Shown: piece by piece, positions 1 through 25,597 of the stretch
Position numbering within the stretch: position 1 is the stretch's first letter
Layout of the letters: each line of letters opens with the position of its first letter
Assembly (NCBI GenBank): GCA_012799155.1
Contig: JAAZLV010000067.1
Location: 1-25,991 of the forward strand
DNA: 25,991 nt
Reading direction: 5' to 3'
Source of the DNA: Bacteroidales bacterium
Lineage (GTDB): Bacteria > Bacteroidota > Bacteroidia > Bacteroidales > Dysgonomonadaceae
Program-made: the position numbers and the translations under genes
Notes under the pieces: generated by a model
What the model saw: only the letters and a program-made list of their open reading frames with translations
What the model was told of the DNA's origin: nothing
Databases searched by the model: none

Positions 1-135
1 ATCCGGTAAGTTCGTGTTGGCACCTTGCTGGTTGTTCCCTGCACAAGCTGCCATTGTGGAGGTGGCGGCGATGGAGGCACCTGCAAGTGCGGCCTTCTTT
101 ATAAAATCACGGCGGTTGTTCTTTTCTGTATGCAT
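1..135 (-). CDS. Tat-exported protein, N-terminal fragment (cut by window edge)
   Basis: Only the first 45 codons are present; the gene continues past the left edge. Translating from the ATG at 135 gives a twin-arginine signal: NNRRDFIKKAALAGAS, then a small-residue hydrophobic stretch ending in TMAACAG. The Cys at residue 31 could make it a Tat-exported lipoprotein. It starts 43 bp after the stop of the phosphodiester glycosidase gene and in the same direction, so it is probably the next gene of the PUL operon. Bacteroidetes proteins with this kind of leader are often Gfo/Idh/MocA oxidoreductases, sugar isomerase-like TIM barrels or glycoside hydrolases, but nothing visible here distinguishes them. 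Export and start are fairly secure; the function is unknown. Confidence 0.75.
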   Translation of the reverse strand, partial: MHTEKNNRRDFIKKAALAGASIAATSTMAACAGNNQQGANTNLPD

Positions 136-178
136 CTCGGTCGATGTTATGATTGTTTCTGTTTGTTTGTTCTGTTTT

Positions 179-1426
179 TTAATAGATGGCCACCATGTTG
201 GTGATGGCGCGTTGTTTGCCGTCACTGGGAAGGATGGTCTCCTTTCCGTTCACCAGCAGACAGGATGAGCCTCCGCCATCCAGATTGATTGCCTGGGTAC
301 ACCCCGTCGCCAGCAGGATGTCAGCCACCTCCCTGAGCGTCATCCCGGGGGTATTCGGTGTTTTGTTGCGTCCCTCGCAGACAAAGAAGAGCAGGAAACC
401 ACCGGGGTGGTAGGCTATTGCCGACCGGGGGTGGCTGGCGGTTGGCCCCACACCACTGGATGCATCAAAGAGCTCATGTAGCCATTGGTTCTGGTACTTC
501 CCATCTTTGATCAACAGGGGACCGGCACCGATGGCGTGGTTGGGTTCCCAGGCAGCCGCCCCCTCTGGAAACGAGGAGGAGGGAACAGGCAGGGGCATTT
601 CACCCGCCACGTTGGGTGCCGGAGCAGGATAGCTGTAAAGAGACCGGTTTGATTCATAGACCCATCGTGCGGTGAAGGTACCGTCGTGCTCAGAACCAAA
701 AGCCCCCTGCGTAGGATGATAAGGCGTTTGCACCCCGTTGTAGGAGCGATTGACCACCGGTTGGGCGTGTACAATGGTTACCCCATCCCTTATGATCAGT
801 CCCAGGGAGTTACCGGACCAGAAATAGCCGCCATTCAGCAATGCCCTGGGCTGGCTCTGCTGACTGTAGAACTGTGCGGGTGTAGCAGAAGAACCGGTTT
901 TCTCACCCAACACCTTGAAGCTCCCCTTGCCGGGTTTGATATCGGCAACAGCCACGTAGGCGTTCACCTGCTTTTCGGGCAGATCCTTGCGATACTTGAA
1001 CAGCGCGAGGTAGTCCGGCATATCACCATAACCCTTCTGTTGCTCCCATTCTTCAGCCGAGAGCGGGAAGCTGCTGGATCGAATGATTGAAACAATGGAG
1101 TAGGAGACAATTTGATTGTTCTTCTCAACCTGGATCAGCTGCTTGCCGGTCAGATCGAACAGGGCTCGTGTGGATTGCGGTTGTACCATCCTGGCATCAT
1201 TGGCCAGGATAAACTCCAGTTCCATGTTGTCGAGATCGTCGGCATGCTCGAAAAAGAGCTCAATCGTTCTCCTGAAATTGTCGATCTTCACCTCATCTAC
1301 CGGGTGTGACAACACCTTTACCCCAGTGATGTAGTTCAAATCGCCGCTCTCCTCATTACCATGTGTGGCGCAGCTGAAGAGCAACAGCAGGAACAACAGC
1401 CATGTCTTGTTTTTACCGTGCATCAT
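179..1426 (-). CDS. Phosphodiester glycosidase family lipoprotein (NAGPA / DUF2233 domain)
   Basis: The protein has a short lipoprotein signal (KNKTWLLFLLLLFSC) and a C-terminal NAGPA-type domain. Diagnostic pieces are LLNGGYFW near residue 200, HPRSAIAYHPGG, and the family hallmark INLDGGGSSCLLVNG near residues 378-393. The family includes the human uncovering enzyme, which removes alpha-GlcNAc from GlcNAc-1-phospho-6-mannose, and bacterial DUF2233 proteins. By homology this one is predicted to hydrolyse a sugar-1-phosphodiester outside the cytoplasm. The open frame extends to a TTG at 1450, but the ATG at 1426 (or 1423) places the hydrophobic segment correctly and is preferred, giving 415 aa. 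The first 150 residues match no domain I recognise. It follows the phosphoesterase gene closely in the PUL. The family call is strong; the substrate is unknown. Confidence 0.88.
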   Translation of the reverse strand: MMHGKNKTWLLFLLLLFSCATHGNEESGDLNYITGVKVLSHPVDEVKIDNFRRTIELFFEHADDLDNMELEFILANDARMVQPQSTRALFDLTGKQLIQVEKNNQIVSYSIVSIIRSSSFPLSAEEWEQQKGYGDMPDYLALFKYRKDLPEKQVNAYVAVADIKPGKGSFKVLGEKTGSSATPAQFYSQQSQPRALLNGGYFWSGNSLGLIIRDGVTIVHAQPVVNRSYNGVQTPYHPTQGAFGSEHDGTFTARWVYESNRSLYSYPAPAPNVAGEMPLPVPSSSFPEGAAAWEPNHAIGAGPLLIKDGKYQNQWLHELFDASSGVGPTASHPRSAIAYHPGGFLLFFVCEGRNKTPNTPGMTLREVADILLATGCTQAINLDGGGSSCLLVNGKETILPSDGKQRAITNMVAIY

Positions 1427-1468
1427 CTTTCCGATTGTTTCCTTAATCAAGCCATTTTGTTCATCTGA

Positions 1469-2938
1469 TCACCGTGAGATGGTTTCCTGATAGACCCGGC
1501 CAAAAGGATCTGCAGCCGTGATGGTGATCTTAGAGTCAGGTTTGCGGGGTGTGGCGCGGAAGAGATGATCGGTCAACTCAGGACCTATCCAGCTGAACTC
1601 GAGCTTCTCCTTGTTGCTGTATGCTTTCTCCACTTCCGGATCGAGACCCTCGAAACGGGTCATCTCGCCCATCGGGACTCCATCTTCGAACCATTCGACA
1701 CGCCAATTTTTGTCCCAGTTCCAGATGTTGGCCACCACATCGTTGCCATACCTGCCGGTGGTGTTGGGTGCATAGACCCGCATCTGGTGATCACGATCCT
1801 TTCCCACGCTCTTGAAATACCAAGTCACCTCCGATCCGTCGATCTCGTACACACCATACCCCACCGGGGTTCCATCGAGACAGTAATCGCCCTGCCACCA
1901 GGCACCCGATACCGCACCCGTGTTGTGTTCATATAGGTTATCTGAATGGATGATGTTGCGGTTGTAATGCATGTGTCCCGTGAAAAGGTGTACTTTGTAT
2001 GGTTTCAGCATCCTGAAGAGGGAGGCGATGTTGGTGGTTTGTGCACTGATCTCGCGAGAGTTGTACTGGAATGGCTTTGCTGTTTCATCGAGGCGCCCCG
2101 GGATATGCATGGACAGAATCAGTGTGGATCCTGTCGGCACATGTGACAGATCCTGCTCTAGCCAGGTGAATGTTTTTTCATCGATGTAACCCATGTAGAA
2201 GTAATCTCTCCCTACATAAAAGACATTGTTCAGCACCACGTAATGCACCGCTCCCCTGTTGAAGGAGTAGTGGTCGGGTCCAAAATTCTGCTCGTATCGG
2301 GCGGTGGATGTCTCTGTGCTTCGTCCCCCGAACTGAAGGTCATGATTGCCCGGCATGCGGTAGTAGGGGATGCCGGCACGACTCAATTGCTCGATGTAAG
2401 GCGGGTAGAGTTCAGGTTTGTCGCCCACCAGATCGCCACACTCTATTCCCAGGATATCCCTGTCTGAATAAGCCATCTTTAACTGGTACATGTCGTCCAC
2501 AACTGTTGCATAACGTTTGAAGTTTTCCTCCTTGTGGAATTGCGGATCGGCGGTGACAAGCAGCAGTTGTCGGTTGTCATCTACCGGGTTCTTGTTTAGG
2601 AAGAAATCATACGCGAGCCTTGTGGTGTCAATTGGAATATAAAAGCGTGGTACCATCTTCTCCTCTGCCGGCAGGTAACCTGCCGGGGTGGAGATGTAGA
2701 TGAACCTGGCATTCTGGTGGGGAACCAGACTGAAGGTGCCGTCACTGTCAGTCAACACACACTGGTAGCCATCGGTGACCACCACGTTGGGCATTCCTCC
2801 CTCGCTGGAGTTCACTTTTCCGGTTACTGTTGCAGCTGCAACAGCACCCGGAAGGCAAAAGAGGAGCAGCAGCGCAGTGAGCAAGAAGCAGATGGCATAC
2901 CCACGTGAAACAGATCCTGGTGACATTCGGTTGGTCAT
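1469..2938 (-). CDS. Calcineurin-like metallophosphoesterase, exported
   Basis: This 489-aa protein has a signal peptide (AICFLLTALLLLFCLPGAVAA). An N-terminal beta-sandwich of the kind found before Bacteroidetes calcineurin-like enzymes follows (about residues 36-110, VTGKVNSSEGGMPNVVVTDG). The metallophosphatase core carries all the metal-ligand motifs: TADPQFH, ECGDLVGD, MPGNHDLQ, SMHIPG and FTGHMHYN. A C-terminal beta domain completes the protein. The layout corresponds to MetallophosN / Metallophos / MetallophosC proteins. The core hydrolyses phosphomono- or diesters using two metal ions, here in the periplasm or at the surface. It lies 4 bp after the GHL10 gene and 42 bp (to the ATG at 1426) before the phosphodiester glycosidase, so all three are probably co-transcribed. 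The substrate is not determined. The phosphate chemistry matches its NAGPA neighbour. Confidence 0.9.
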   Translation of the reverse strand: MTNRMSPGSVSRGYAICFLLTALLLLFCLPGAVAAATVTGKVNSSEGGMPNVVVTDGYQCVLTDSDGTFSLVPHQNARFIYISTPAGYLPAEEKMVPRFYIPIDTTRLAYDFFLNKNPVDDNRQLLLVTADPQFHKEENFKRYATVVDDMYQLKMAYSDRDILGIECGDLVGDKPELYPPYIEQLSRAGIPYYRMPGNHDLQFGGRSTETSTARYEQNFGPDHYSFNRGAVHYVVLNNVFYVGRDYFYMGYIDEKTFTWLEQDLSHVPTGSTLILSMHIPGRLDETAKPFQYNSREISAQTTNIASLFRMLKPYKVHLFTGHMHYNRNIIHSDNLYEHNTGAVSGAWWQGDYCLDGTPVGYGVYEIDGSEVTWYFKSVGKDRDHQMRVYAPNTTGRYGNDVVANIWNWDKNWRVEWFEDGVPMGEMTRFEGLDPEVEKAYSNKEKLEFSWIGPELTDHLFRATPRKPDSKITITAADPFGRVYQETISR

Positions 2939-2942
2939 TGTT

Positions 2943-4286
2943 TTATTCGTTCATTGCGCCCCCTTCACGCATCCCTTTCTCCACATAATCCCACATGTCC
3001 TTTGTAATGATGTGGACGATGTCGAAAATCATCAGACCATCGGAAGTGGCCAGGTTCATCTTGATCGACTCGGTAAGCCCCTCCGGATTGTCGTAGAACT
3101 GATCGGCCAGTATGCCGCCGTAGAATTGGTTCCCGTCGAGGATTGTTTTCAGATTCTGGTTCGATCCCTCTACGCAATACCAGATGCTCTTCTGACCCCA
3201 CATGTCGGTCTCATTTTTCACCTCCGGGTTCTTTTCCTGGTACTCATCAATGGTGATGGTGGTGTAGTAGTTACCCACCGTGAAGAGGTCGAGCAATTCG
3301 GCATATCCCTGTTCCTTATAGGTGGGTGATGCCCAGTCGTAGTCGGCCGAAGGATCGTAGTTCTTGCTGGCGAAATTGACACCCACCTCGAAGTAAGAGG
3401 GGTACCAGGCACCCGTATAAGTGCCGAACGAGATCTCTGGATTTGCCTCTTTGATCACGCCCCTGGCCTTGGCCATGAAGTTGTGGATCACCGAGGCGCG
3501 CCATTCGATCCACTGCAGGAAGTACTGTCCCCGTTCGGGATAGAAATTGCCCTGTTCATCCTTCTTCCAGCGATAGATGTCGTCAGGAAACAGATCCAGT
3601 TCCTTGCCAAGGTACTCCTCGAACTTCCGGCGTGAGAGCTCGGAGAAGTCGGCAGTGAAGCCGTCGTAGCGCACCCTGTCGAGGATAACGCCATCCAGTT
3701 CCGGGTATTTTGTAACCACCTCACGGAAGATGTTCAGGATATATTCCTGGAACTCCTCGTTGATGGGATTGACCATCGCCGAGTATTTCTGCTTCTCTTC
3801 GGTGATGGGGATCAGCTTCACCTCTTCATTGGGGGGGTAGACAATTGTTGCCCAATCGGCTTTTCCACCCTCGTAGATTGGACCTTCATCCATGTAATTG
3901 TGTCCTGCCACAAAGGTGTTGAGTGATGCCTGTACCTTCATTCCCAACTTGTGGGCCTTTTCAATGTAGTAGCCCAGGTAGTCGAACGTGTAGTTGATCT
4001 CTTTTCCATTCCATTCGGTAAGTAGTGGAGCATAGTCACTTTCATAAAGCAAATGACCCGAGATGGGGCGCACATCGACAACTATGTCGGTGAATCCCAG
4101 CTCCTTCACTTTTTCAAGATAATAGTCGATGGTGTCTTTGTTGTTGAACCGTTCGATATTGGCGGTGGCGTCGATCCACATCAGCTTGGGTGCTACTTCA
4201 GCCAATTCATTGTTGCTGCTCCCGGTGCAGGAATAGAGTCCTGTCGTGATCAGGAGTGATATAATCAGTTTTGTGATATTGCTCAT
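2943..4286 (-). CDS. GHL10/DUF187-like glycoside hydrolase lipoprotein, copy A
   Basis: This 447-aa protein has a lipoprotein leader (MSNITKLIISLL..GLYSC). The rest is a TIM-barrel-type domain: MWIDATANIERF, FTDIVVDVRPISG, then ELDGVILDRVRYDG near the middle, where the Asp residues of the barrel are the likely catalytic or binding residues. GHL10 relatives include E. coli DigH, which acts on denuded peptidoglycan glycans. It is clearly paralogous to the next gene upstream: both share WIDA.AN, FTD.VVD.RP.SG, LDG.ILDR.R.DG, GW/AWY..Y.EVGVN.AS and GYAELLD. The open frame runs further upstream, to 4391, but that would overlap the other gene. The internal ATG at 4286 gives a proper lipobox and is chosen. 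The family is fairly sure; the sugar specificity is unknown. Automated annotation may call it an 'alpha amylase family protein'. Confidence 0.82.
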   Translation of the reverse strand: MSNITKLIISLLITTGLYSCTGSSNNELAEVAPKLMWIDATANIERFNNKDTIDYYLEKVKELGFTDIVVDVRPISGHLLYESDYAPLLTEWNGKEINYTFDYLGYYIEKAHKLGMKVQASLNTFVAGHNYMDEGPIYEGGKADWATIVYPPNEEVKLIPITEEKQKYSAMVNPINEEFQEYILNIFREVVTKYPELDGVILDRVRYDGFTADFSELSRRKFEEYLGKELDLFPDDIYRWKKDEQGNFYPERGQYFLQWIEWRASVIHNFMAKARGVIKEANPEISFGTYTGAWYPSYFEVGVNFASKNYDPSADYDWASPTYKEQGYAELLDLFTVGNYYTTITIDEYQEKNPEVKNETDMWGQKSIWYCVEGSNQNLKTILDGNQFYGGILADQFYDNPEGLTESIKMNLATSDGLMIFDIVHIITKDMWDYVEKGMREGGAMNE

Positions 4287-4353
4287 TTTGTGTGGGTATA
4301 ATGTGTTTATTTGTAATTCAGAAAACCCTCTTTCAGCATGGCGTAATGGGTTG

Positions 4354-5745
4354 TTACTTCCCGATGGCAATGTCGATGCCCTGTTTGGCATATTGCCACT
4401 GGTTGGCCATCTTGAGGTGGATCATATCGAACAGGAAGTAACCGTCGCACTCATCCATGCAGGCCTTCACCGATTCCACGATGGCCTGGTTCTCCTGCTG
4501 CTGGGTGGCCACATTGTTGCTATCCCAGTTGCCAACATCGGGCCCGCTGACAACGAGGGGACCATCCTTGATCTTATCCTTGGCCAACCGGGAGAAGCCC
4601 TGCATGGTCCATTCGGAGGTGCCGTAGACACTCAGGGGGGAGGCGTAGGCTCCGATAAGGATATGATCCAGCAGCTCGGCATAACCGTAATCCATGTACT
4701 TGGGTGTTGCCCACTTGTAGGTGAGGCTGGGGTTGTATCGATTGCTGGCCCAGTTGACACCCACCTCGTAGTAGGTGGAGTACCAGCCACCCACATAGAC
4801 ACCAAATAGGATGTCAGGATTGACAGACTTTACGGCATTCCTTGCTTTTCCCATGAAGTCGTGGATCACCTTCGCCCTGAACTCGAGCCACCTGGTGAAG
4901 TAGGGAGGATAGTTGGAGAGCGCCATCACCTGTTGCATGGTGGCTCCTACAGGGACAATGTCTTCCGGAAACTGCTCAACCTTCACATTCCCGAGGTAGC
5001 TCTCAAACGCGTTCCGGGTTATCTCCGAGAAGTCGGACTGCATCCCGTCGAAACGGCCCCTGTCCAGGATGATGCCGTCCAGGTCGTATTTTGCCAGGTC
5101 TACCAACAGCTCGCAGAGGTAGTCTTGTACCGCTACGTTGGCAGGGTTGAGGAACTTGGTCCCTCCACCCGCATCCATCGTGTTGGTGATGCCAATGGAG
5201 AGATTCTCCGAGGTGGCCCAATCTTTCTTGGAGGCATCGCGGTAGAGGATGCCCTGGCTGCCCAATCCGCTGCTGTGTCCGCCCACCATAGTGTTGAATC
5301 CGGCATGTACCTTCAGATCGAGCTTGCGTGCTTCTTCAATGAAGACTTGCAGATAATCCCATGTTGCGGTCCGTTCCACCTTCGAGTAGACGCCATTGAC
5401 CCATGCGCCCAGCCATTGTACCTTTGCAGAACCCGGCACGGATGAGTTGTACAGAATGTCACCGGAAGTGGGTCGGATGTCAACCACCACATCGGTGAAG
5501 CCAGCATTTTTGGCCAGCGTCAGGTCGCGTGTGATGTTTTCCCTGTTGTTGGCGAAGTCAGGGAAGTTGGCCGCGGCATCGATCCAGATGTAACGTGGTT
5601 TGTCAATATTTTCTTTCGGTGGATCCGGGAACTCATATCCCGGATCAGGATTGTCGTCACCGCTGCAGGTGACCGACAGGAAGAGACAGCTGAGGAGCAG
5701 CACCGAGGTGAAAATCCTATTGTAATGAATTGATTTTTTTGTCAT
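4354..5745 (-). CDS. GHL10/DUF187-like glycoside hydrolase lipoprotein, copy B
   Basis: This 463-aa protein has a lipoprotein signal (FTSVLLLSCLFLSVTCSGDD) followed by a spacer rich in Asp and Pro, typical of surface lipoproteins. The catalytic-type barrel shows YIWIDAAANFPDF, FTDVVVDIRPTSGD, YDLDGIILDRGRFDG and GVYVGGWYSTYYEVGVNWAS. It is a diverged tandem paralogue of copy A, lying 67 bp upstream of it. The differences are concentrated in loops after the first and third strands, and in the C-terminal third, where A has ILADQFYDN and B has VVSGPDVGNWD. Distinct subsites are therefore likely. The ATG at 5745 is chosen over the longer frame (to 5892) because it starts the signal peptide and because the longer start lies in the promoter-like gap. 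It is the first gene after the internal promoter and inverted repeat. Confidence 0.82.
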   Translation of the reverse strand: MTKKSIHYNRIFTSVLLLSCLFLSVTCSGDDNPDPGYEFPDPPKENIDKPRYIWIDAAANFPDFANNRENITRDLTLAKNAGFTDVVVDIRPTSGDILYNSSVPGSAKVQWLGAWVNGVYSKVERTATWDYLQVFIEEARKLDLKVHAGFNTMVGGHSSGLGSQGILYRDASKKDWATSENLSIGITNTMDAGGGTKFLNPANVAVQDYLCELLVDLAKYDLDGIILDRGRFDGMQSDFSEITRNAFESYLGNVKVEQFPEDIVPVGATMQQVMALSNYPPYFTRWLEFRAKVIHDFMGKARNAVKSVNPDILFGVYVGGWYSTYYEVGVNWASNRYNPSLTYKWATPKYMDYGYAELLDHILIGAYASPLSVYGTSEWTMQGFSRLAKDKIKDGPLVVSGPDVGNWDSNNVATQQQENQAIVESVKACMDECDGYFLFDMIHLKMANQWQYAKQGIDIAIGK

Positions 5746-5828
5746 GTAATGAATAATTGGGGTTATATCCTCGTTTCCCGGTAAAACGCACCGGGGACAC
5801 ACTGCAAGTAATATGCAGGGTGATGAAA

Positions 5829-5919
5829 AGTTGTCCAGGTTTTTGTAGATAACTAAATCAAAGCCGGTACCAAAGGTAACACATATCTTCATTTAATCAG
5901 GTACAAAACCTGGACAACT
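5829..5919. repeat. 15-bp perfect inverted repeat flanking a promoter-like element
   Basis: AGTTGTCCAGGTTTT at 5829-5843 is the exact reverse complement of the bases at 5905-5919, with 61 bp between the arms. The arms lie either side of the -7-like box at 5871-5878 in the gap between the DUF5018 gene and GHL10 copy B. This would suit a pair of operators for one dimeric or looping regulator. Alternatively it could form a 15-bp RNA stem in read-through transcript from the SusCD half of the operon. The match is seen directly; the role is inference. Confidence 0.6.
5871..5878 (-). promoter_or_regulatory. Candidate internal PUL promoter (-7 box)
   Basis: On the minus strand this reads TACCTTTG, an exact match to the Bacteroidetes -7 consensus TAnnTTTG. 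No good -33 TTTG is present at the usual 19-21 bp spacing, so it may need an activator. A transcript from here would have a leader of about 120 nt before the ATG at 5745, with a small CCCGGT/ACCGGG hairpin at 5777-5795. Confidence 0.4.
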
Positions 5920-5947
5920 GGTTCATGCATTTACTGCATAACAGGTC

Positions 5948-7609: not shown

Positions 7610-7623
7610 ATGATTAAATCTGT

Positions 7624-9243
7624 TTATTTCCAACTGTCGTATTGTTCGATCAATGAGTTGTTTGCCAGCTCCGCATCAGGGATTGGCAGGATGTAGTTCT
7701 TCGCTGAGAACTTACGGTCCTGGTAATCCACATCAATGTACTCGTAGTTGTCACCGGTGATCTTGAAGCCATGGGCACGTGTGTTGTTGTACTCGATGTG
7801 TGCAAGCTTCCATCTTCTCATGTCCCAGAAGAGGTGACCTTCGTATGCCAGCTCCACCTTCCGTTCGTTTCTGTAGTCGTTGAACCACTCATTTCCGGAT
7901 GTGTTTTTTGCAGGCAGTCCGACCCTGGCACGCACTTCGTTCAGTGCATCCCTCGCTTCACCCATCTTGTTGAGCCGGAAGGCGGCTTCTGCCAGATTGA
8001 GCAGTACCTCTGCGTAACGAATCTCCACCCATGCCTGGGTGCTCGGGATGCCTTTCACATCGATGAGTGACTCATCCATCAGCTTCTTGAGGTAATAGCC
8101 GGTGGTGGTGAGTCCATAACTGTAGGGTTGTTCCCTGTAAGCCATGAAGGTACCATTGGTGCCATTCACCGAGTTTTGCATCACCTTGCCTTTCCAGATG
8201 CTGCCAGGAAAGATGACGGTTGCTTTGAATCGGGGTTCCAGTTCTTCATAGGGAGGTCTTGTCGCGTTCACTGTATGGTAGGGTGTCCAGTCCATCTTGG
8301 TGCCATCAGCCTTCTCGTAACTCTCCACCATCTCCTGGGTGGGGGTACCCAACCCTCCGAACTCATAACCGTCGCTCAGGGGCACATAATCTTTGTCGAA
8401 TGTGTGATTGGGCCCAATGACATCATACTTGAACTCCAGAATCGACTCCTCGTTGCTACCCTTCCAGGCTTTGGCATAGTCGTCCACCAGCTCGTATTTT
8501 TCTGATTTTACTACCTGATCAGCCGCATCATAAGCCGATTGCCAGCGCTCTGCAAACAGCATCGCACGCGATTTGAATGCAAGAGCCGCATATTTGGTCA
8601 CTCTACCCTGATTCTTACCTGTCCATGATTCCGGCAGGTTTGCGATGGCATAGTCGAGGTCACTCTCAATCAGATCCCAGGTGGCCTGGTTGGAACTACG
8701 TGCCTTGTCTTTTTCCATCTCGGCGATGGAGGTGTAGAGGATGACACCGTCGTGTCTTCTGGCTAGCTGGAAGTAGATGAACGCACGGAAGAAGAGCACC
8801 TGTGCCTTCCAGCGGGTGTTTTGCTCTTCCGGGAACGTACCATATTGCTCCATGGAGTGAAGAAACTCGTTCATTCTGCGGATCTTGTTGTAGGCATCAC
8901 TCCAAACACTGTAGAATCCACCGGAAGCGGTGGTGATCAGACTCGGATCGAATACATAGCTGTTGGCGTGTCCTGCCTTGTGACCAGGTGAGTAGGATCC
9001 ATACTTGAACGTGTTGGTAAAGCTTTCGGACAGGTTGCCGCTAGCCTGTGCCGATCCGAACTGGCCATACTGATTCAGATAGGTATAAAAACCATTCAGA
9101 TAGAGATCAACGCTCGACTCATCCTCCCAAATCACTTTGTCGGTCAGTTTGTCGGTAGGGGTCAGGTCCAGCCAATCTGAGCAACTGCTGAAGACGAACA
9201 CAGCAGTTGTCAAGTAGAGTAGTGTCCTAAATATTTTTTTCAT
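7624..9243 (-). CDS. susD-like: RagB/SusD family outer-membrane nutrient uptake lipoprotein
   Basis: This 539-aa protein has a lipoprotein signal (TAVFVFSSC) followed by SDWLDLTPTDKLTDKVIW, the standard SusD N-terminus. The helical TPR-like core is recognisable (AQVLFFRAFIYFQLARRHDGVILYT, KYAALAFKSRAMLFAERW). The C-terminal region has the conserved EIRYAEVLLNLAEAAFRLNKMGEARDALNEVR-type helices and YRNERKVELAYEGHLFWDMRRWK. SusD caps the SusC channel on the cell surface and captures oligosaccharide. It starts 20 bp after the susC stop, the usual arrangement. The ligand cannot be read from the sequence. Confidence 0.96.
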   Translation of the reverse strand: MKKIFRTLLYLTTAVFVFSSCSDWLDLTPTDKLTDKVIWEDESSVDLYLNGFYTYLNQYGQFGSAQASGNLSESFTNTFKYGSYSPGHKAGHANSYVFDPSLITTASGGFYSVWSDAYNKIRRMNEFLHSMEQYGTFPEEQNTRWKAQVLFFRAFIYFQLARRHDGVILYTSIAEMEKDKARSSNQATWDLIESDLDYAIANLPESWTGKNQGRVTKYAALAFKSRAMLFAERWQSAYDAADQVVKSEKYELVDDYAKAWKGSNEESILEFKYDVIGPNHTFDKDYVPLSDGYEFGGLGTPTQEMVESYEKADGTKMDWTPYHTVNATRPPYEELEPRFKATVIFPGSIWKGKVMQNSVNGTNGTFMAYREQPYSYGLTTTGYYLKKLMDESLIDVKGIPSTQAWVEIRYAEVLLNLAEAAFRLNKMGEARDALNEVRARVGLPAKNTSGNEWFNDYRNERKVELAYEGHLFWDMRRWKLAHIEYNNTRAHGFKITGDNYEYIDVDYQDRKFSAKNYILPIPDAELANNSLIEQYDSWK

Positions 9244-9263
9244 TTTATATCAAGTTAAAGTGA

Positions 9264-12200
9264 TTATAATGAGAAGTTAATCCCGAACGAAAGTGTCTTC
9301 TGCTGTGGGTAATACCCGTTGTTCACACCAGGTTGCTCGGGGTCGATGTTGTACTTCGTCAGCTCGCTGAAGGTGAAGAGGTTAGACCCCTCCATAAAGA
9401 GCCTGATCTTGTCCACACCGGCTTTGCGGGTAAGGGCGGAAGGGATGGTATATCCCAGCTGGAATGATTTCACCCGTAGGTAGTTGCCATTCCTGTACCA
9501 GAAGGTGGAAGAGTAGGCATTGTTGGTGCTGACCGTAACCAGCGACAGACGGGGGAACTCTGCCTGCGGGTTCTCCGGTGTCCAGGAGTTTTCGGGCACA
9601 AACGAGGGTGTATTTCCACCATGATAGAACATCCCGGTGAAGACGGTATTGTCCATCACTCCGTTGGAGTATACACCTGTCAGTGCCACGGTACGTCCCA
9701 GACCCGATTGCAACAGGATGTCGAAGTCGAATCCTTTCCAGTCGGCGTAAAGATTGAGTGAGGTCTGGAACTTGGCATAGGGGCTTTTGCCTACATAACC
9801 AATGTCCTGGGCGTAGGTGATCTTGCCATCCCCGTTGCGGTCCTTGTATCGAATGTAACCGGGCAGTACCGGTGATCCTGGGATGGTGGGTGAATTGGCG
9901 ATCTCATCCTCTGACTGGAAAAGTCCATCGGCAATGAAACCGAGCTGTGATCCCACCTCCTTGCCTGTCAGCTTGCGATAATCGGGCGTGTTCTCCGAGT
10001 CGCCTGCATAATAGAGCCACCTGCGGTTAGCAAGGGTGCCGATCCACTTCACACCATAACGGAAGTCGCCAATCTTGTTGTTGTGCGTGATGGTGAAGTC
10101 CAAGCCTCTGTAATCGATCTTGTTTACATTGTCAGAGCTGAAGAAGTAGCCACCCATGGAAGGAGGATAGGAGCCACCCACACTCGCCAGCAGGTCATAT
10201 TGATACTTGTAGAAGAGATCTAGTTCCACACCCAGCAAGCCTCTCCATGCCATGAATTCCACACCGGCATTGTAGGTGATTGCTTTGGCCCATGAAAGAT
10301 AGGGATTGCCGAGCGTACTGGAGTAAATCATGCTCTCTCTCTGGTTGGCAAGGATCAGTGCATTGGACTGGATTGTCATCAGATTGAGATACTGGAACGC
10401 GCTAACGGCTGAAGTCGCAGTTTTACCGATACCGCCTCTCAGTTTGAGGTTGTCGATCCAGTCGGCCTGGAACCACTCTTCGTTGTTCATGCGCCATCCT
10501 GCCGATACTGCCGGTAAATTAACCCACTGTGAGCCGGCCATTCCACTGAAGAGGTAGCTGCCGTCGCGGCGAATGGATGCTTCCAGCAGGTAACGGTTGT
10601 CATAGTCATAGTTGAGCCTTCCCACGAAACCGACCAGTCGAGACTGGCCACTGTTTCCGGAGATGGAAGGGATTCTCTCCTCACCGTTGCCGGTGGTGTT
10701 GGTAATCATGCTCAGTTCGTCCAGCTCTAGGAAGTTAAGTCCATAGCCTGTCGCTCCTAGTGTGTTGGAGAAGTTGTTGCGGGTCTCGGCAAGTCCGAAG
10801 AGGTTGATCTTGTGCTTGTCGAACTGACGGTTGTAGGTGAAACTCGACTGCGTCACCACGTTGGTGGAGCTATGCGCACTTTCGCTCAGGGAGGTGTTCC
10901 CGGAGTTGTTCAGGAAAGAGGTGTAGCTGATGACCTCGGTGGTTGTTGCCGGCAAGCCAGCCATCATCGTTTCGAAAGGTATCGTGAGCGATTTGTTGAA
11001 CTGGAAGAAACGGTCGTAGGCTCCCATGAATTTCAGGCTCAACCCCTCCATCCAGGGTGCATCATAATTGAGCGAGAAGTTTGTCTGGATGGTGGTGTTC
11101 CTGGGACGGCTGTACCCTGACTGGTAGATCGCTGCCAGCGGACTCACGGGAGAGGAGGCGGTACGGGTAGAGGTGTAATACTCTTTCCCATCGTTTCCAA
11201 CAATCGTCTTGGGGATATAGGGCAATGCACGAACCGCTTGCTGGGGTATGTTGTGCCAGTCTTCGGGGTTCGCCGAATAGTTGGGACGGTCATGCTCGTC
11301 GAGACGTCCTGCCACGTTCATGACAAGTGAGAGGTGATCGGTGAGTTTCGCATCAATGTTGGCCCTCAGGTTGTAACGGGTATAATTGAAGTTGTCCACA
11401 TTTCCTTTTTGCTGAAAAGCACTGAGCGAGGAGAAGAACTTCACTTTATCGCTGCCGCCAGTGGCACTCACGTTGTGGTTCATGGTGCGTCCGACACCAA
11501 ACACCTCGTCATACCAGTTGGTGTTGCCCCAACCATCGACGCCTGCTTTCATCTTCTCCACCTGCTCGGAGGTGAAGACGGGATCATCTCCATCCATCTC
11601 CCTGGCCATGTTGTACCAGTATGCGTATCCCGGTCCATCGAGCCACTTGATCTGGTTGGCGTTCTGACTGATGCCATAGTTCCCATTGTAGGAGATGCCC
11701 AGTTTTCCCTCTTCACCTCGTTTGGTGGTTACAATAACCACAGAGGTGGCATTCAACCCATACACAGAGGCGGAAGTGGCGTCCTTGAGAATGGAGATTG
11801 ATTCAATCTCATTGGGGTCGATTTCATTAATGCTCCGGATCACACCGTCGACGATGTAGGTGGCACCCTCACCCCGCACAAGCAATGAGGCTCCATCCTG
11901 TCCCGGTTGACCCGATTGTTGCAGAGAAGTTATACCTGCAACACGTGCACCCAGCACATTGGTCACACCCACTACCGGAGCTCTGATCAATTCAGTATCA
12001 GAGAGTGTAGAGACAGCACCGGTTACGCTAGCCCTGCGTTGTGTGCCGTATCCTACCACGATCACTTCGTCCAGCAGCTCGGTATCTTGCTCCATGGTTA
12101 CAGTGACAAAATTCCTGCCGTTGAGCGGAACTTCAAGTTCTGTGAAACCCACATAAGAAAATACCAATGTACTGTTGACTGAGGGAACAGATAGAGTGAA

Positions 12201-12407
12201 ATTACCATCCATATCGGTAACGGTACCTTGTCGTGTGTCCTTAAGTATTACGTTAACGCCAATCAGGGTTTCCCCTGTCGCATCATTTACCTTCCCTCTG
12301 ACATTCACCTGTGCATAGGTGATCAGCGTTGAGAGAAAGAAGAGTGAGAGAAACAGTGCCCGAAGGGTGCTGTGACTCCACTTTAAAGTACGGGTCTTGC
12401 TTTCCAT
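9264..12407 (-). CDS. susC-like: SusC/RagA family TonB-linked outer-membrane transporter
   Basis: At 1047 aa this is a full-length SusC. The signal peptide ends at about residue 32 (FFLSTLITYAQ). A carboxypeptidase-regulatory-like domain follows (VRGKVNDATGETLIGVNV, about 35-110), then the TonB-box-like segment DEVIVVGYGTQRRASVTGAV. The plug domain has LLVRGEGATYIVDGV and ESISILKDATSASVYG, and the barrel runs to the C-terminal end KTLSFGINFSL. The plug lacks the longer 'NxPLYVIDG' loop, a variation of a known SusC subgroup. It imports oligosaccharide across the outer membrane using TonB energy, partnered with the adjacent SusD. It starts 28 bp after the DUF4434 gene and depends on the promoter upstream of the epimerase gene, since no room for a promoter is seen in the gap. 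Confidence 0.97.
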   Translation of the reverse strand: MESKTRTLKWSHSTLRALFLSLFFLSTLITYAQVNVRGKVNDATGETLIGVNVILKDTRQGTVTDMDGNFTLSVPSVNSTLVFSYVGFTELEVPLNGRNFVTVTMEQDTELLDEVIVVGYGTQRRASVTGAVSTLSDTELIRAPVVGVTNVLGARVAGITSLQQSGQPGQDGASLLVRGEGATYIVDGVIRSINEIDPNEIESISILKDATSASVYGLNATSVVIVTTKRGEEGKLGISYNGNYGISQNANQIKWLDGPGYAYWYNMAREMDGDDPVFTSEQVEKMKAGVDGWGNTNWYDEVFGVGRTMNHNVSATGGSDKVKFFSSLSAFQQKGNVDNFNYTRYNLRANIDAKLTDHLSLVMNVAGRLDEHDRPNYSANPEDWHNIPQQAVRALPYIPKTIVGNDGKEYYTSTRTASSPVSPLAAIYQSGYSRPRNTTIQTNFSLNYDAPWMEGLSLKFMGAYDRFFQFNKSLTIPFETMMAGLPATTTEVISYTSFLNNSGNTSLSESAHSSTNVVTQSSFTYNRQFDKHKINLFGLAETRNNFSNTLGATGYGLNFLELDELSMITNTTGNGEERIPSISGNSGQSRLVGFVGRLNYDYDNRYLLEASIRRDGSYLFSGMAGSQWVNLPAVSAGWRMNNEEWFQADWIDNLKLRGGIGKTATSAVSAFQYLNLMTIQSNALILANQRESMIYSSTLGNPYLSWAKAITYNAGVEFMAWRGLLGVELDLFYKYQYDLLASVGGSYPPSMGGYFFSSDNVNKIDYRGLDFTITHNNKIGDFRYGVKWIGTLANRRWLYYAGDSENTPDYRKLTGKEVGSQLGFIADGLFQSEDEIANSPTIPGSPVLPGYIRYKDRNGDGKITYAQDIGYVGKSPYAKFQTSLNLYADWKGFDFDILLQSGLGRTVALTGVYSNGVMDNTVFTGMFYHGGNTPSFVPENSWTPENPQAEFPRLSLVTVSTNNAYSSTFWYRNGNYLRVKSFQLGYTIPSALTRKAGVDKIRLFMEGSNLFTFSELTKYNIDPEQPGVNNGYYPQQKTLSFGINFSL

Positions 12408-12435
12408 TTGTTTTCGTTTTTGTTGTTACTGTTTT

Positions 12436-13524
12436 TTAAATGGTAAAATGTTCTCGATATCTTTCATACAGGAATTTCGCCTGAGGATAGGTTGAGTTTG
12501 GGCTCATAAAGTGTGAAAACTCAAACGTGATAGCATCCTCCATGCCGGCTAACCTTGCAGCTTCAAGTTTTAAGAGTAGTTTCTCCCATTTGATGGGCAG
12601 AAATCGAATGGGCATATCACGATCAAATGATTCGATATTAGTCCAACACCTCATTTGATGAGCATCTGCTAACTTTTTATTCACCTCGAGATAATCAGCT
12701 AATTCATGATAATTGACCTGCCCATCCTGAAAAGCAAGAATGTCAATTGCGCCTTCCACATTTGTCAGAATCTCATTCCACTCTTTTTCATGTTCCTGTA
12801 TGGTGATTGCAGAGTCTCCACTCATTACCTGATCCGTTTTTACACCATGTATATAAGGTGAAACAAGTGTGGTCAGATTTCCTGATACCTTCTTTGCATG
12901 TTTGCCAACCTCGGCATATATTTTTGACATGTTTTTTGTACGTCGGCTAATCTCCTGCGAGAGGTACCATCCTTTAAAGGATGGGTGGTGCCCATATTTT
13001 TCCCAAACTTCGTCTATTAGCCTAAGATTCAGGTCAATCTCCTTCTGATATTTTCCTTCAATCCAATATCGACCGGAATCATACATGCCGAACATGAAAT
13101 TCATGTTGTATTTGTCGGCAAGCGTGAGAAACATTTCTGTAAGATCGACGGGTGGGTAATATACATCTTCAGTTTTTAAGATAGTTTCAAATGGTGATGC
13201 GATCCACCATCCCAGACCCGATCGAATCATAACAACAGTGTTGATACCGATTGCTTTCATCGATTGAAAATCGAGATCCCACTCAAGTACTCCCCAATTC
13301 TGGTGCGGGATGTCCCAGCTAACCTCATCCAGGAAGGTAGCATGAATCGGCATCCCTTGATAAATAGATGGTGTTTCAAATGTTTTGTTCGAAAGGGAAG
13401 ACTCCGTTATTAATTGTCCTGCACCTATTCCTGACTCATGGGTGTGACTATGTAGAGATTGAGTTGCAAGAATACCTGCAGAACCCAGCACCGCACTTTT
13501 TAAAAATTTTCTCCTGCCGCTCAT
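12436..13524 (-). CDS. Tat-exported DUF4434-type TIM-barrel protein (putative glycoside hydrolase)
   Basis: This 362-aa protein starts with a Tat signal (MSGRRKFLKSAVLGSAGI). The body has the pattern of DUF4434 / glycoside-hydrolase-like TIM barrels: HATFLDEVSWDIPHQNWG, DLDFQSMKAIGINTVVMIRSG, a strand with MNFMFGMYDSGRYW, then FKGWYLSQEISRR, where the Glu is a candidate acid/base. Later strands are TTLVSPYIHG, IDILAFQDGQV, CWTNIESFDRD and DAITFEFSHFMSPNS. The open frame reaches 13590, but that would overlap the AGE gene; the ATG at 13524 fits both the Tat signal and a 19-bp gap. The gene looks clearly more AT-rich than susC. Family assignment is from pattern memory, so moderate; catalytic activity is not shown. 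Confidence 0.72.
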   Translation of the reverse strand: MSGRRKFLKSAVLGSAGILATQSLHSHTHESGIGAGQLITESSLSNKTFETPSIYQGMPIHATFLDEVSWDIPHQNWGVLEWDLDFQSMKAIGINTVVMIRSGLGWWIASPFETILKTEDVYYPPVDLTEMFLTLADKYNMNFMFGMYDSGRYWIEGKYQKEIDLNLRLIDEVWEKYGHHPSFKGWYLSQEISRRTKNMSKIYAEVGKHAKKVSGNLTTLVSPYIHGVKTDQVMSGDSAITIQEHEKEWNEILTNVEGAIDILAFQDGQVNYHELADYLEVNKKLADAHQMRCWTNIESFDRDMPIRFLPIKWEKLLLKLEAARLAGMEDAITFEFSHFMSPNSTYPQAKFLYERYREHFTI

Positions 13525-13543
13525 TTTGTTAAACTTAATAGGT

Positions 13544-14752
13544 TCATTCAGACATTGATTTTGACACATGAGAATCCTGAAGAGTATCAATTTGATCTAA
13601 TATGGTCCAACATTGATACAATCCCCGAGGCACATGGAAACAACCTTTCCATTTGCCCCCCTTCAGGTCCAGCAACACCTCTCCCTGACGGTTGAGGTAG
13701 CCCCACCATTCCGGGTGGGCGGGATCCTTGAAGTGAGTCCATGTGTAGTCATGGACCTTCTCAAACCATGAGAGACACTCCTGAGAACCTGTCAATTGAT
13801 ATCCTTTAAGCAAAGAGATCAATGCCTCTATATGAACCCACCACAGCTTCTGGTCCCATTCAAGTTGCTGGGGAGGATATCCTTTGCGATCCAGGAAATA
13901 AAAGATGCCACCATATTGTTTATCCCACCCATACTTCAGGGTTTTAAGCGTGGTCTCTACTGCCTGATCGATCAGTTTAGGACGGTCAAGCCGCACCCCC
14001 AGGTCCATGATAAACCACATTGCCTCGATGGCATGCCCCGGATTCATCAAACGGCCGTCGAATGTGTCCGAAAGGGAGCCATCTCTGTTAAGATTCTCAA
14101 CGATTAATCCATCCAGTTCCGGATGCCTGAATACCTCCATTACTTCATGTATACATTCCTCCATGACCTGATGTAGGTAATCCTCATCCAGTAGATGCTC
14201 AATCTCAAGTGCCAGATTGCATAGAATCATGGGCAACGAGAAACTCTTGAGCGACCTTGTTCCACTGAATGTTTTGTTCCATTGCCCTTTTGGATTCTCT
14301 TTTTTTGCAAGGATGATGTCGAATGTCTTTTTAGCGATTTCAGCATATACGCTGCTGCCGGTAGCCAAGCTTAGCTGGCCAAAAGCCATAGTGGCAAATG
14401 TATAGGAGAAAATGTTATAGGGCTCAATTAAAGGCATCCCTTCCCGGGTTAGTGAGAAATACCAGTTGAATTCCCCATCATGGCCATGTTTTCTTAAAAA
14501 TTCAGCACCCTGCAGTGCACATTCCAACCACTCCTGCCGTTTTTCGACTTTGTTGTAAAGCATCGCGAAAAGCCAAACCTCTCTGGCCTGAAGCCAGACA
14601 AACTTGTCGGTGTCAAATATCCTGCCCTGTCGATCGAGGCAGCTGAAGTAACCACCCATTTCCAGGTCTTGTGAGTGATTCAACCAGAAGGGAACCACAT
14701 TGTCTAAAAGTTCGCCCTTGTATTGTTCGGCAAGATTGTTAAAATATTCCAT
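13544..14752 (-). CDS. AGE family N-acylglucosamine 2-epimerase
   Basis: This 402-aa cytoplasmic protein has the (alpha/alpha)6 barrel pattern of AGE / renin-binding protein over its whole length. Highly diagnostic segments are MGGYFSCLDRQGRIFDTDKF, VWLQAREVW, LMNPGHAIEAMWF, WDQKLWWVHIEAL and GGKWKGCFHVPRGLYQCW. Arg57, His240, Glu309 and His373 fit the spacing of the catalytic Arg/His/Glu/His set described for this family. The C-terminal part resembles mammalian GlcNAc 2-epimerase more than cellobiose epimerases, so interconversion of GlcNAc and ManNAc is the leading prediction (EC 5.1.3.8). It is the first gene of the PUL operon and lacks a signal peptide, so it would process the imported sugar. 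No sialate lyase gene (nanA) is in the window, so a simple sialic-acid locus is not evident. Confidence 0.88.
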   Translation of the reverse strand: MEYFNNLAEQYKGELLDNVVPFWLNHSQDLEMGGYFSCLDRQGRIFDTDKFVWLQAREVWLFAMLYNKVEKRQEWLECALQGAEFLRKHGHDGEFNWYFSLTREGMPLIEPYNIFSYTFATMAFGQLSLATGSSVYAEIAKKTFDIILAKKENPKGQWNKTFSGTRSLKSFSLPMILCNLALEIEHLLDEDYLHQVMEECIHEVMEVFRHPELDGLIVENLNRDGSLSDTFDGRLMNPGHAIEAMWFIMDLGVRLDRPKLIDQAVETTLKTLKYGWDKQYGGIFYFLDRKGYPPQQLEWDQKLWWVHIEALISLLKGYQLTGSQECLSWFEKVHDYTWTHFKDPAHPEWWGYLNRQGEVLLDLKGGKWKGCFHVPRGLYQCWTILDQIDTLQDSHVSKSMSE

Positions 14753-24789: not shown

Positions 24790-25143
24790 ATGAAACAGAT
24801 GAATGTACAACAACTTAACCAATTGATTCCAGGAACGATTCTTTTGGAAGGGCATGCTTCAACCCTCTACACAAAAGCGTTCGCCTCTGACCTTATGAGC
24901 GATGTGCTCCGTTTTCAGATGGAGCAGACAGTGCTGGTAACAGGTCTGTGTACCATACAGGTACTGCGGACAGCAGAGATGTCCAATATCACCTGCATTA
25001 TCTTTGCTCGTGGTAAACGGGTCTCTCCTGACATGTTGGCACTTGCGGAGGAGCATCACATCACCCTGATCGAATCAGCGCTGACCCTCTTCGAAATATC
25101 GGGGCGACTCTATCAGGGTGGACTGGAACCAGTGTACCGATGA
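24790..25143 (+). CDS. DRTGG domain protein of a hydrogenase-associated cluster
   Basis: This 117-aa protein is essentially one DRTGG-like domain. The characteristic segments are VLVTGLCTIQVLRTAEMSNI, CIIFARGKRVSPDMLALAEE, and a C-terminal LFEISGRLYQGGL. DRTGG proteins of this size are small putative ligand- or nucleotide-sensing modules encoded beside anti-sigma-like ATPases and [FeFe]-hydrogenase-like proteins in anaerobes. A second ATG at 24799 is an alternative start. Its stop overlaps the next start codon (ATGA at 25140), which indicates translational coupling. The biochemical role is not established. Confidence 0.82.
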   Translation: MKQMNVQQLNQLIPGTILLEGHASTLYTKAFASDLMSDVLRFQMEQTVLVTGLCTIQVLRTAEMSNITCIIFARGKRVSPDMLALAEEHHITLIESALTLFEISGRLYQGGLEPVYR

Positions 25144-25550
25144 AATTCTGTTATGAGATAACGGGAGGTGACTTCAGTGCAGGTGGCAGTGCCAGCTCAC
25201 AGGTGAAGAAGACGCTGAAGCAATTCAACATTGCACCGCAGGTGCTTAGAAGAATTGCAGTAGCCCTCTATGAGGCAGAGATGAATGTTGTGGCACACGC
25301 ATGGAGGGGTAGTATGTGTGTGAATATCAATGTGGATCATCTCAGTGTGGTGGTTGAGGATGAAGGTCCCGGTATTGAAGATATCGATCGGGCGATGGAG
25401 GAGGGTTTCTCTACTGCCACTGAGGAGGTGCGGCAGATGGGATTTGGTGCCGGCATGGGGTTGCCTAACATCCGGAAAAACAGCGATGAGATGGAGCTTA
25501 CCTCCACACCTGGCATCGGTACAAGGCTTACATTGACAATCAGATTTTAA
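25140..25550 (+). CDS. Anti-sigma-factor-like ATP-binding protein (HATPase_c, RsbW/SpoIIAB type)
   Basis: This 136-aa single-domain GHKL ATPase has the N box in ALYEAEMNVVAHAWRG, the ATP-binding Gs in VEDEGPGIEDIDRAM, the G2 region in MGFGAGMGLPNIRKNSDEM, and the terminal strand GIGTRLTLTIRF. The family contains serine kinases that act on anti-anti-sigma proteins. Here it is coupled to the DRTGG gene by a 4-bp overlap and precedes a ferredoxin/hydrogenase-like gene. A partner-switching signal role is therefore likely, but the target is not in the window. Confidence 0.88.
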   Translation: MKFCYEITGGDFSAGGSASSQVKKTLKQFNIAPQVLRRIAVALYEAEMNVVAHAWRGSMCVNINVDHLSVVVEDEGPGIEDIDRAMEEGFSTATEEVRQMGFGAGMGLPNIRKNSDEMELTSTPGIGTRLTLTIRF

Positions 25551-25597
25551 CCTTGTATTGAATCATGACAAGGATGTGACAAACGACGTGACAAACA

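What the first reader, a model, noticed from the sequence alone, without database searches (positions are those of the whole stretch)
1..14752. A PUL combining phosphodiester glycosidase, phosphoesterase, HexNAc epimerase and DigH-like hydrolases: possibly for Gram-positive cell wall or teichoic acid
Seen: one dense minus-strand gene run encodes AGE epimerase, DUF4434, SusC/D, DUF5018, two GHL10 proteins, a calcineurin-like phosphoesterase and a NAGPA protein. Known: NAGPA cleaves GlcNAc-alpha-1-phospho-6-sugar bonds, AGE interconverts ManNAc and GlcNAc, and GHL10 member DigH acts on denuded peptidoglycan. Inference: the wall teichoic acid linkage unit (ManNAc-GlcNAc-1-phospho-6-MurNAc) contains exactly the bond and sugars this set would handle. 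AmgK/MurU genes for MurNAc recycling follow next door. Other HexNAc-1-phosphate polymers, such as capsules, would also fit. No such PUL is known to me.
Basis: partly seen in the sequence, partly recalled or inferred. Interest (0 to 1): 0.72.

Follow-up and report, generated by a model that had tools for sequence, protein, structure and literature searches.

The report
Amino-sugar phosphodiester glycan uptake locus
This stretch of a Proteiniphilum-like bacterium's DNA is a real, widely shared nutrient-uptake gene set that probably dismantles an acetylated amino-sugar polymer carrying phosphate bridges; which polymer it eats is unknown, and nothing found here singles out Gram-positive cell walls.

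Summary
The gene list is right. On the minus strand, in transcription order: AGE epimerase, DUF4434, SusC, SusD, DUF5018, two GHL10/DUF4985 proteins, a calcineurin-like phosphoesterase and NAGPA. The run goes on: window 1-127 is a unique, perfect contig-end overlap with contig C363, which adds a second DUF4434, a sugar-porter MFS, a CE2-type esterase and DUF5009.

Related loci show one conserved PUL type in Bacteroidales and Sphingobacterium. By published gene names it includes the B. [quoted passage not shown] In 20 loci found with GHL10a, SusCD and DUF5018 occur in 20, DUF5009 in 18, a SASA esterase in 17, NAGPA in 13. NAGPA is thus an accessory; AGE usually accompanies the locus with or without it.

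MurU/AmgK accompany none of the loci in view. The GHL10 proteins fold like Cwp19 and PgaB, but the second Asp of the DigH/Cwp19 DD motif is Arg, so DigH activity cannot be carried over.

Best reading: a PUL for an O-acetylated HexNAc (ManNAc/GlcNAc) glycan, probably bacterial, with phosphodiesters. Teichoic acid is possible but not favoured over capsules, exopolysaccharides or host glycans.

The parts
13544..14752 (-). AGE, N-acyl-D-glucosamine 2-epimerase, first gene of the run, no signal peptide seen
   Evidence: PF07221 270 bits, NF052547 708.5 over cut-off 600, 530 bits to 6f04 and 526 to 2gz6
12436..13590 (-). DUF4434 protein; ORF starts with TTG, a twin-arginine type start MSGRRKFLKS lies inside
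   Evidence: PF14488 233 bits; 378 bits to 4h41 'putative alpha-L-fucosidase'; start read by eye
9264..12407 (-). SusC-type TonB-dependent transporter
   Evidence: TIGR04056 831.5 bits over cut-off 368
7624..9243 (-). SusD-type lipoprotein
   Evidence: PF07980, PF14322
5948..7633 (-). DUF5018 lipoprotein, in the position of a surface glycan-binding protein
   Evidence: PF16410 366 bits; lipobox LSGC read by eye
4354..5745 (-). GHL10a: GHL10+DUF4985 TIM-barrel lipoprotein (ORF open from 5892; likely start 5745)
2943..4286 (-). GHL10b: second GHL10+DUF4985 lipoprotein (ORF open from 4391; likely start 4286)
   Evidence: PF02638, PF16373; lipobox LYSC by eye
1469..2938 (-). Calcineurin-like phosphoesterase with MetallophosN and MetallophosC domains
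   Evidence: PF16371, PF00149, PF16370; model pLDDT 91, top folds Rv0805 and GpdQ; best sequence match to solved structures is a purple acid phosphatase
179..1450 (-). NAGPA-domain lipoprotein (phosphodiester glycosidase family) with an N-terminal extension of about 110 residues
   Evidence: PF09992 93 bits; PR(S/T)-A and NLDGGGS regions align with 3ohg and 6pku; Cys27 invariant in a 34-sequence alignment
1..135 (-). 5' end of DUF4434 no. 2; continues on contig C363 with sugar-porter MFS, CE2-type esterase and DUF5009
   Evidence: window 1-127 identical to G000:C363:1-127, the only two places found in the genome; families on C363

Best explanation
This is one operon-like PUL of a conserved type that feeds on an O-acetylated polymer rich in N-acetylhexosamines (ManNAc and GlcNAc), most likely a bacterial surface glycan (capsule, exopolysaccharide or wall glycopolymer), in a variant equipped for phosphodiester bonds. 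Proposed working: SusD and the DUF5018 lipoprotein bind the glycan at the cell surface; the two GHL10/DUF4985 lipoproteins cut the HexNAc backbone; esterases strip O-acetyl groups (CE2 type on C363 here, SASA or GxDLY in relatives); NAGPA hydrolyses HexNAc-alpha-1-phospho bonds and the calcineurin-like phosphoesterase opens or clears the remaining phosphoesters; SusC imports the pieces; DUF5009 (a distant NagX/HGSNAT relative) re-acetylates free glucosamine in the periplasm; the MFS porter carries HexNAc inward; AGE converts ManNAc to GlcNAc in the cytoplasm for the Nag pathway. In some relatives a NagC-like ROK protein lies beside the locus. Shown: gene content, conservation, contig continuation, folds, intact NAGPA and AGE homology. 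Inferred: every enzymatic step, the locations and the substrate.
For: Gene set and domains. Continuation on C363 by a unique 127-bp perfect overlap, adding DUF4434, MFS, CE2 and DUF5009. Of 80 NAGPA loci, many cut by contig ends: GHL10 in 70, DUF5018 67, SusC 56, any PE 41, AGE 36; of the 38 of at least 18 kb: GHL10 35, SusC 32, AGE 26. Of 20 loci found with GHL10a: SusC, SusD and DUF5018 20, DUF5009 18, SASA 17, PE 16 plus one PE2tat, NAGPA 13. AGE in those 20 after extending some views upstream: of the 13 with NAGPA, present in 8, a divergent AGE-family protein (276 bits, L197) in 1, absent in 1 (L177), undecided at contig ends in 3; of the 7 without NAGPA, present in 6, undecided in 1. HexNAc signs among neighbours: DUF5009, NagC-like ROK (185 bits, below its 650 cut-off), GH20, PIG-L de-N-acetylases, a glucosamine-6-phosphate isomerase family protein. 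O-acetyl signs: SASA, GxDLY, CE2, AXE1, and single ORFs of 886-911 aa that match both SASA and GHL10 in 7 loci. GHL10 fold nearest to Cwp19 and the PNAG hydrolase PgaB.
Against: No enzyme of the locus has been assayed and no substrate is shown. The GHL10/DUF4985 proteins have Arg where DigH and Cwp19 have the second Asp of the DD motif, so even glycosidase activity is inferred. Whether the phosphoesterase is a diesterase is open: by sequence its best solved match is a purple acid phosphatase (E 5e-6) ahead of GpdQ and acid-sphingomyelinase-like diesterases, purple acid phosphatases also rank high by fold, and its first metal motif reads D-x-Q (DxH is the usual form, recalled). NAGPA is missing from the fetched stretch in 7 of 20 loci and in 4 of 5 further loci of the order (L183-L186; present in L187). 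AGE is absent from about 38 kb around one such locus (L183 with L201). 10 of 80 NAGPA loci show no GHL10 in view. DUF5009 is far below the NagX cut-off (41 of 480 for L028). The B. thetaiotaomicron counterpart lies in a region called an N-glycan PUL, and 3 of 80 loci carry a sialidase-cluster gene.
Confidence: 0.5

Rival explanations
1. One reading: the PUL dismantles Gram-positive wall material, with NAGPA cutting the GlcNAc-1-phospho-6-MurNAc bond of the wall teichoic acid linkage unit, AGE handling its ManNAc and GHL10 cutting denuded peptidoglycan.
For: NAGPA, AGE and a phosphoesterase lie in one run; the nearest solved GHL10 relative is Cwp19, a C. difficile surface protein whose gene lies in the anionic polymer locus; GDPD-type phosphodiesterases in 2 of 65 unlabelled neighbour ORFs.
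Against: No MurU or AmgK beside related loci; no MurQ, MurK, amidase or muramidase in the neighbour tables I saw (a sample); the DigH/Cwp19 DD motif reads DR; the linkage unit is one short stretch per polymer (recalled), a poor reason for AGE to accompany loci that lack NAGPA.
Confidence: 0.12
2. The substrate is an O-acetylated HexNAc-1-phosphate polymer such as the serogroup A meningococcal type capsule, a chain of ManNAc-1-phosphate: esterases remove acetyl groups, NAGPA cuts the anomeric phosphodiester, PE removes phosphate, AGE feeds ManNAc into GlcNAc metabolism.
For: NAGPA, several esterase families, PE and AGE sit in one locus type. Passages of PMC7501274 give that capsule as repeating 6-linked alpha-ManNAc-1-phosphate, O-acetylated at C3 and C4, and mention a GlcNAc-1-phosphate capsule (serogroup X).
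Against: Two GHL10 TIM-barrel proteins are a constant part and such a homopolymer has no glycosidic backbone for them (inference from the repeat unit); 7 of 20 loci lack NAGPA in view; such polymers would have to be common in many habitats.
Confidence: 0.12
3. The locus serves host glycans: sialylated or O-acetylated N- or O-glycans, with the SASA esterase de-O-acetylating sialic acid and AGE handling ManNAc.
Against: Sialidase is rare in the loci and no NanL-type lyase is among families seen twice or more (which shows 25 of 50 families); close loci come from Proteiniphilum, Petrimonas and Maribellus (record titles; that many of these are not host-associated is recalled); Cwp19 and PgaB rank above GH156 by fold.
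Confidence: 0.16
4. NAGPA here does not cut phosphodiesters but an ordinary alpha-glycosidic bond of an exopolysaccharide, and PE is a monophosphatase; the PUL is a HexNAc exopolysaccharide system without phosphodiesters.
For: NAGPA is an accessory (13 of 20) and sits at different places in the locus; some relatives are named exopolysaccharide biosynthesis protein; the best sequence match of PE is a purple acid phosphatase.
Against: Regions shared with solved phosphodiester alpha-N-acetylglucosaminidases are conserved and the PE model is best matched by the phosphodiesterases Rv0805 and GpdQ.
Confidence: 0.2

Closest known systems
Bacteroides thetaiotaomicron BT0446-BT0454 region (operon BT0453-BT0449)
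   Same: By names in a table passage of PMC10434189: BT0446-0449 are DUF5009, family 10 glycosylhydrolase, calcineurin-like phosphoesterase C-terminal protein, family 10 glycosylhydrolase; BT0451-0454 include SusD, SusC and a sugar-porter MFS. Substrate unknown.
   Different: Compared by names only, not by sequence; NAGPA and AGE are not named in that passage; neighbours are an alpha-N-acetylglucosaminidase/SusCD operon and an N-glycan region.
NAGPA uncovering enzyme (6pku and others) and the DUF2233 structure 3ohg
   Same: The PR(S/T)-A and NLDGGGS regions align significantly.
   Different: Only about 75-100 residues align significantly; the NGGYF region aligns but not significantly; the reaction is untested.
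Cwp19 and E. coli DigH (GHL10), PgaB C-terminal domain
   Different: DUF4985 subfamily; the DD of DigH/Cwp19 is DR, followed by an invariant Arg231; 56-66 bits against GHL10 versus 453 for DigH.
GpdQ and Rv0805 class III phosphodiesterases; purple acid phosphatases
   Same: Rv0805 and GpdQ are the top fold matches of the PE core; GD, GNHD and GHxH invariant.
   Different: Extra N- and C-terminal domains (PF16371, PF16370); first motif D-x-Q; best sequence match is purple acid phosphatase.
Bacteroides nanLET sialic acid operon (recalled)
   Same: AGE-type epimerase beside sugar transport genes.
   Different: No NanL lyase family seen twice or more among neighbours; other hydrolase families.

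Membership tests
Polysaccharide utilization locus (PUL) | Tandem susC-susD pair with linked surface hydrolases | tested here: met
   TIGR04056 831 bits over cut-off; SusD_RagB 176 bits; adjacent genes on one strand
NAGPA / phosphodiester glycosidase PF09992 | Profile match above cut-off with conserved family regions | tested here: met
   93 bits over 25; PR(S/T)-A and NLDGGGS regions align with 3ohg, 6pku, 6pky and 6u11; NGGYF region aligns only without significance
NAGPA / phosphodiester glycosidase PF09992 | Hydrolysis of GlcNAc-alpha-1-phospho-6-sugar | not testable with these tools
   needs an assay
AGE, N-acylglucosamine 2-epimerase | NCBIfam equivalog NF052547 | tested here: met
   708.5 over 600
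DigH-type denuded-glycan hydrolase | GHL10 domain | tested here: met
   56 and 66 bits over cut-off 27.9
DigH-type denuded-glycan hydrolase | Asp-Asp motif of DigH/Cwp19 (Asp195-Asp196 in Cwp19) | tested here: not met
   DigH FDDYFY against LDRGRF and LDRVRY in the window; Arg229 in at least 90% of the 50-sequence alignment A2
DigH-type denuded-glycan hydrolase | Cleavage of denuded peptidoglycan | not testable with these tools
   needs an assay
GpdQ/Rv0805-like phosphodiesterase | Calcineurin-like fold and metal-ligand motifs | tested here: met
   model pLDDT 91, top fold matches Rv0805 and GpdQ; GD, GNHD, GHxH invariant, first motif D-x-Q
GpdQ/Rv0805-like phosphodiesterase | Closer to diesterases than to monoesterases | tested here: inconclusive
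   by fold Rv0805 and GpdQ first; by sequence purple acid phosphatase first
AmgK/MurU recycling as part of the PUL | Conserved linkage with the PUL | tested here: not met
   0 of 80 and 0 of 20 loci at 60 bits or more (the sets overlap and many loci are cut by contig ends); over all loci searched only one 33-bit MurU match (L072) and none for AmgK
NagX transmembrane acetyltransferase | NCBIfam NagX equivalog score | tested here: not met
   a relative (L028) scores 41 of 480 and the fragment on C363 has no match; PF16401 DUF5009 is met in this genome
Sialic acid (nan) operon | NanL-type lyase linked to AGE | tested here: inconclusive
   no such family among those seen twice or more in 65 ORFs; families seen once are only partly shown
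Teichoic-acid or peptidoglycan utilization locus | Linked MurNAc or polyol-phosphate catabolism, amidases or muramidases | tested here: inconclusive
   none in the neighbour tables seen, apart from GDPD in 2 of 65 ORFs; unlabelled ORFs under 230 aa were not scanned as a set

The most novel reading that the evidence does not exclude
A whole class of Bacteroidota uptake loci, including one in the model gut species, is dedicated to phosphodiester-bearing, O-acetylated ManNAc/GlcNAc polymers of other bacteria, such as teichoic-acid or secondary wall glycopolymers or HexNAc-1-phosphate capsules, with a NAGPA-family enzyme as a bacterial glycan phosphodiester glycosidase and the GHL10/DUF4985 proteins as a glycosidase family with a changed active site.
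Probability: 0.3. Interest if true: 0.75.

Novelty: new variant of a known kind. Interest (0 to 1): 0.45.

Why it matters
A locus type shared by gut Bacteroides, Proteiniphilum, Maribellus and Sphingobacterium should serve a common nutrient, yet the substrate of its likely B. thetaiotaomicron counterpart is still called unknown in the paper I saw. The recurrent set (AGE epimerase, O-acetylesterases, phosphoesterase, DUF5009, often NAGPA) narrows the search to acetylated amino-sugar glycans, some with phosphodiesters, and gives a short list of substrates to test in a genetically tractable species. If the substrate were a bacterial wall or capsule polymer, it would show these bacteria feeding on their neighbours' surface glycans.

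Tried and rejected
AmgK/MurU as part of the system: rejected, no conserved linkage. My recall that BT2818-BT2826 might be the counterpart: rejected after reading passages; that locus is listed with BACON proteins and a chitinase. A scan seeded with the single NAGPA protein found no relative; one seeded with alignment A1 did (527 stretches matched, 514 relatives, best 80 kept). Promoter, terminator and TTTG/TAnnTTTG scans gave about what shuffles give. No Rfam match. A shared N-terminal domain between NAGPA and DUF5018: weak only (hhalign probability 37%). DUF5009 as a MurNAc transporter (TfMurT): raised by a remark in PMC9007349 (passages); PMC5790795 (passages) describes MurT as a sodium symporter or MFS protein, so not pursued. 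Literature: ten searches listed no paper that I recognised as describing this PUL type or its substrate; only open-licence PMC papers are held, and I saw listings and passages, never a whole paper. Families missing from the fold lists are not taken as excluded.
Full report
What is there. The window is contig C214 of a genome in 444 contigs, 85% complete; its nearest named relatives are Proteiniphilum, Petrimonas and similar genomes. On the minus strand nine genes run from 14752 down to 179: AGE, DUF4434, SusC, SusD, DUF5018, GHL10a, GHL10b, a calcineurin-like phosphoesterase (PE) and NAGPA. Neighbours overlap or lie close; the upstream MurU gene is separated by 208 AT-rich bases. Lipobox cysteines read by eye suggest that SusD, DUF5018, both GHL10 proteins and NAGPA are lipoproteins; AGE shows no signal peptide.

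It continues past the window. The left edge holds the start of a tenth gene at 135-1. The first 127 bases of the window are identical to the first 127 bases of contig C363, and a search of the genome finds this sequence only there, as expected for two contigs that meet in an assembly graph. C363 carries DUF4434 no. 2, a sugar-porter MFS, a CE2-type SGNH esterase and a truncated DUF5009. Two relatives, L189 and L191, also have DUF4434 then MFS downstream of NAGPA, with other genes between. The other end of C363 matches no other contig.

Conservation. An alignment of 34 NAGPA sequences was used to scan one genome per species; the best 80 loci of 514 were kept. Window proteins were matched to their ORFs. 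Many loci are cut by contig ends. Counts at 60 bits or more: GHL10 in 70 of 80, DUF5018 67, SusD 57, SusC 56, any PE 41, AGE 36, DUF4434 35. Of 38 loci of at least 18 kb: GHL10 35, SusC 32, AGE 26. Three Sphingobacterium loci (L062, L082, L084) carry SusCD, DUF5018, two GHL10, AGE and NAGPA. NAGPA is found in 19 of 101 genomes of the window's family and in 9 of 393 of an order-wide sample, own genome included in both.

A test not seeded with NAGPA. GHL10a was sought in 149 genomes around B. faecis; 23 matched at E <= 1e-60. I fetched 20 stretches from 18 of these, leaving out four genomes already seen through NAGPA loci (with them NAGPA would stand in 17 of 24) and one with a weak match. SusC, SusD, DUF5018 and the query GHL10a are in 20 of 20, DUF5009 18, SASA 17, PE 16 plus one PE2tat, NAGPA 13. 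NAGPA sits after DUF5018, GHL10a, PE or DUF5009. After extending some views upstream, AGE is present in 8 of the 13 NAGPA loci, a divergent AGE-family protein in 1, absent in 1 (L177, about 33 kb seen), undecided at contig ends in 3; of the 7 without NAGPA it is present in 6 and undecided in 1. In a thinner order-wide search GHL10a was found in 6 of 295 genomes; of the five other than this one, NAGPA is in view in one (L187, the same contig as L168) and not in four (L183-L186); AGE is in view in L184 and L185, and absent from about 38 kb around L183. So NAGPA is an accessory and AGE a usual but not universal member. A consensus order is FAD oxidoreductase, DUF4434, MFS, AGE, DUF4434, SusC, SusD, DUF5018, GHL10a, (NAGPA), PE, SASA, GHL10b, DUF5009, (NAGPA), GxDLY, with a ROK gene alongside in some.

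Neighbours as clues. Recurrent extra families are DUF5009, BACON lipoproteins, sugar MFS, SGNH and SASA esterases, FAD oxidoreductases, NagC-like ROK proteins, GH20 and Gfo/Idh/MocA. Seven ORFs of 886-911 aa match both SASA and GHL10. Of 65 further ORFs of at least 230 aa scanned as a set, 6 are ADP-ribosyl-GH, 3 each AXE1, SSF, HipA and DUF4434, 2 each DUF4855, sialidase, GDPD and PIG-L; 25 of 50 families were shown. Passages of PMC9007349 propose that NagX acetylates periplasmic glucosamine; DUF5009 is only a distant relative. Together these point to O-acetylated amino-sugar glycans. No MurNAc or peptidoglycan family was in the tables I saw, and no MurU/AmgK pair accompanies a related locus in view.

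B. thetaiotaomicron. A table passage of PMC10434189 lists BT0446-0449 as DUF5009, family 10 glycosylhydrolase, calcineurin-like phosphoesterase C-terminal protein and family 10 glycosylhydrolase, and BT0451-0454 as including SusD, SusC and a sugar-porter MFS. [quoted passage not shown] PMC7531118 (passage) calls BT0451-BT0461 an N-glycan PUL. I did not compare these genes by sequence.

Verdict. A real, widespread PUL type with an open substrate.

Noticed in passing
window 1-127 and G000:C363: Unique perfect 127-bp contig-end overlap shows that the PUL continues on C363 with DUF4434 no. 2, MFS, CE2 esterase and DUF5009.
   Followed up: yes
window 15754-17178: AmgK-like kinase carries a RapZ C-terminal domain (PF22740, 115 bits) and overlaps a MurU-like gene; both are below the NCBIfam equivalog cut-offs.
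   Followed up: partly
window 12436-14752: DUF4434 (GC3 0.39) and AGE (GC3 0.52) differ in composition from SusC to NAGPA (GC3 0.63-0.71), suggesting a mosaic origin.
   Followed up: no
L049, L054, L066, L170, L178, L180, L181: Single ORFs of 886-911 aa match both the SASA esterase and GHL10, tying de-O-acetylation to the GHL10 substrate.
   Followed up: partly
window 24790-25990: Plus-strand DRTGG/HPr-kinase-N-like protein followed by a small HATPase, with an unassigned ORF beyond; not part of the PUL.
   Followed up: no
L024 and L193: Two NAGPA genes with DUF5009, GH20 and a GH28-like gene in one locus of a Bacteroidales genome.
   Followed up: no
window 4354-5745: The Pfam domain DUF4985 covers residues 341-455 of the modelled TIM-barrel protein GHL10a, so it may be part of the barrel and not a separate domain.
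   Followed up: no
L205 6278-7439: AGE of B. reticulotermitis appears as three overlapping ORF pieces, a draft-sequence error or a broken gene; described only.
   Followed up: no
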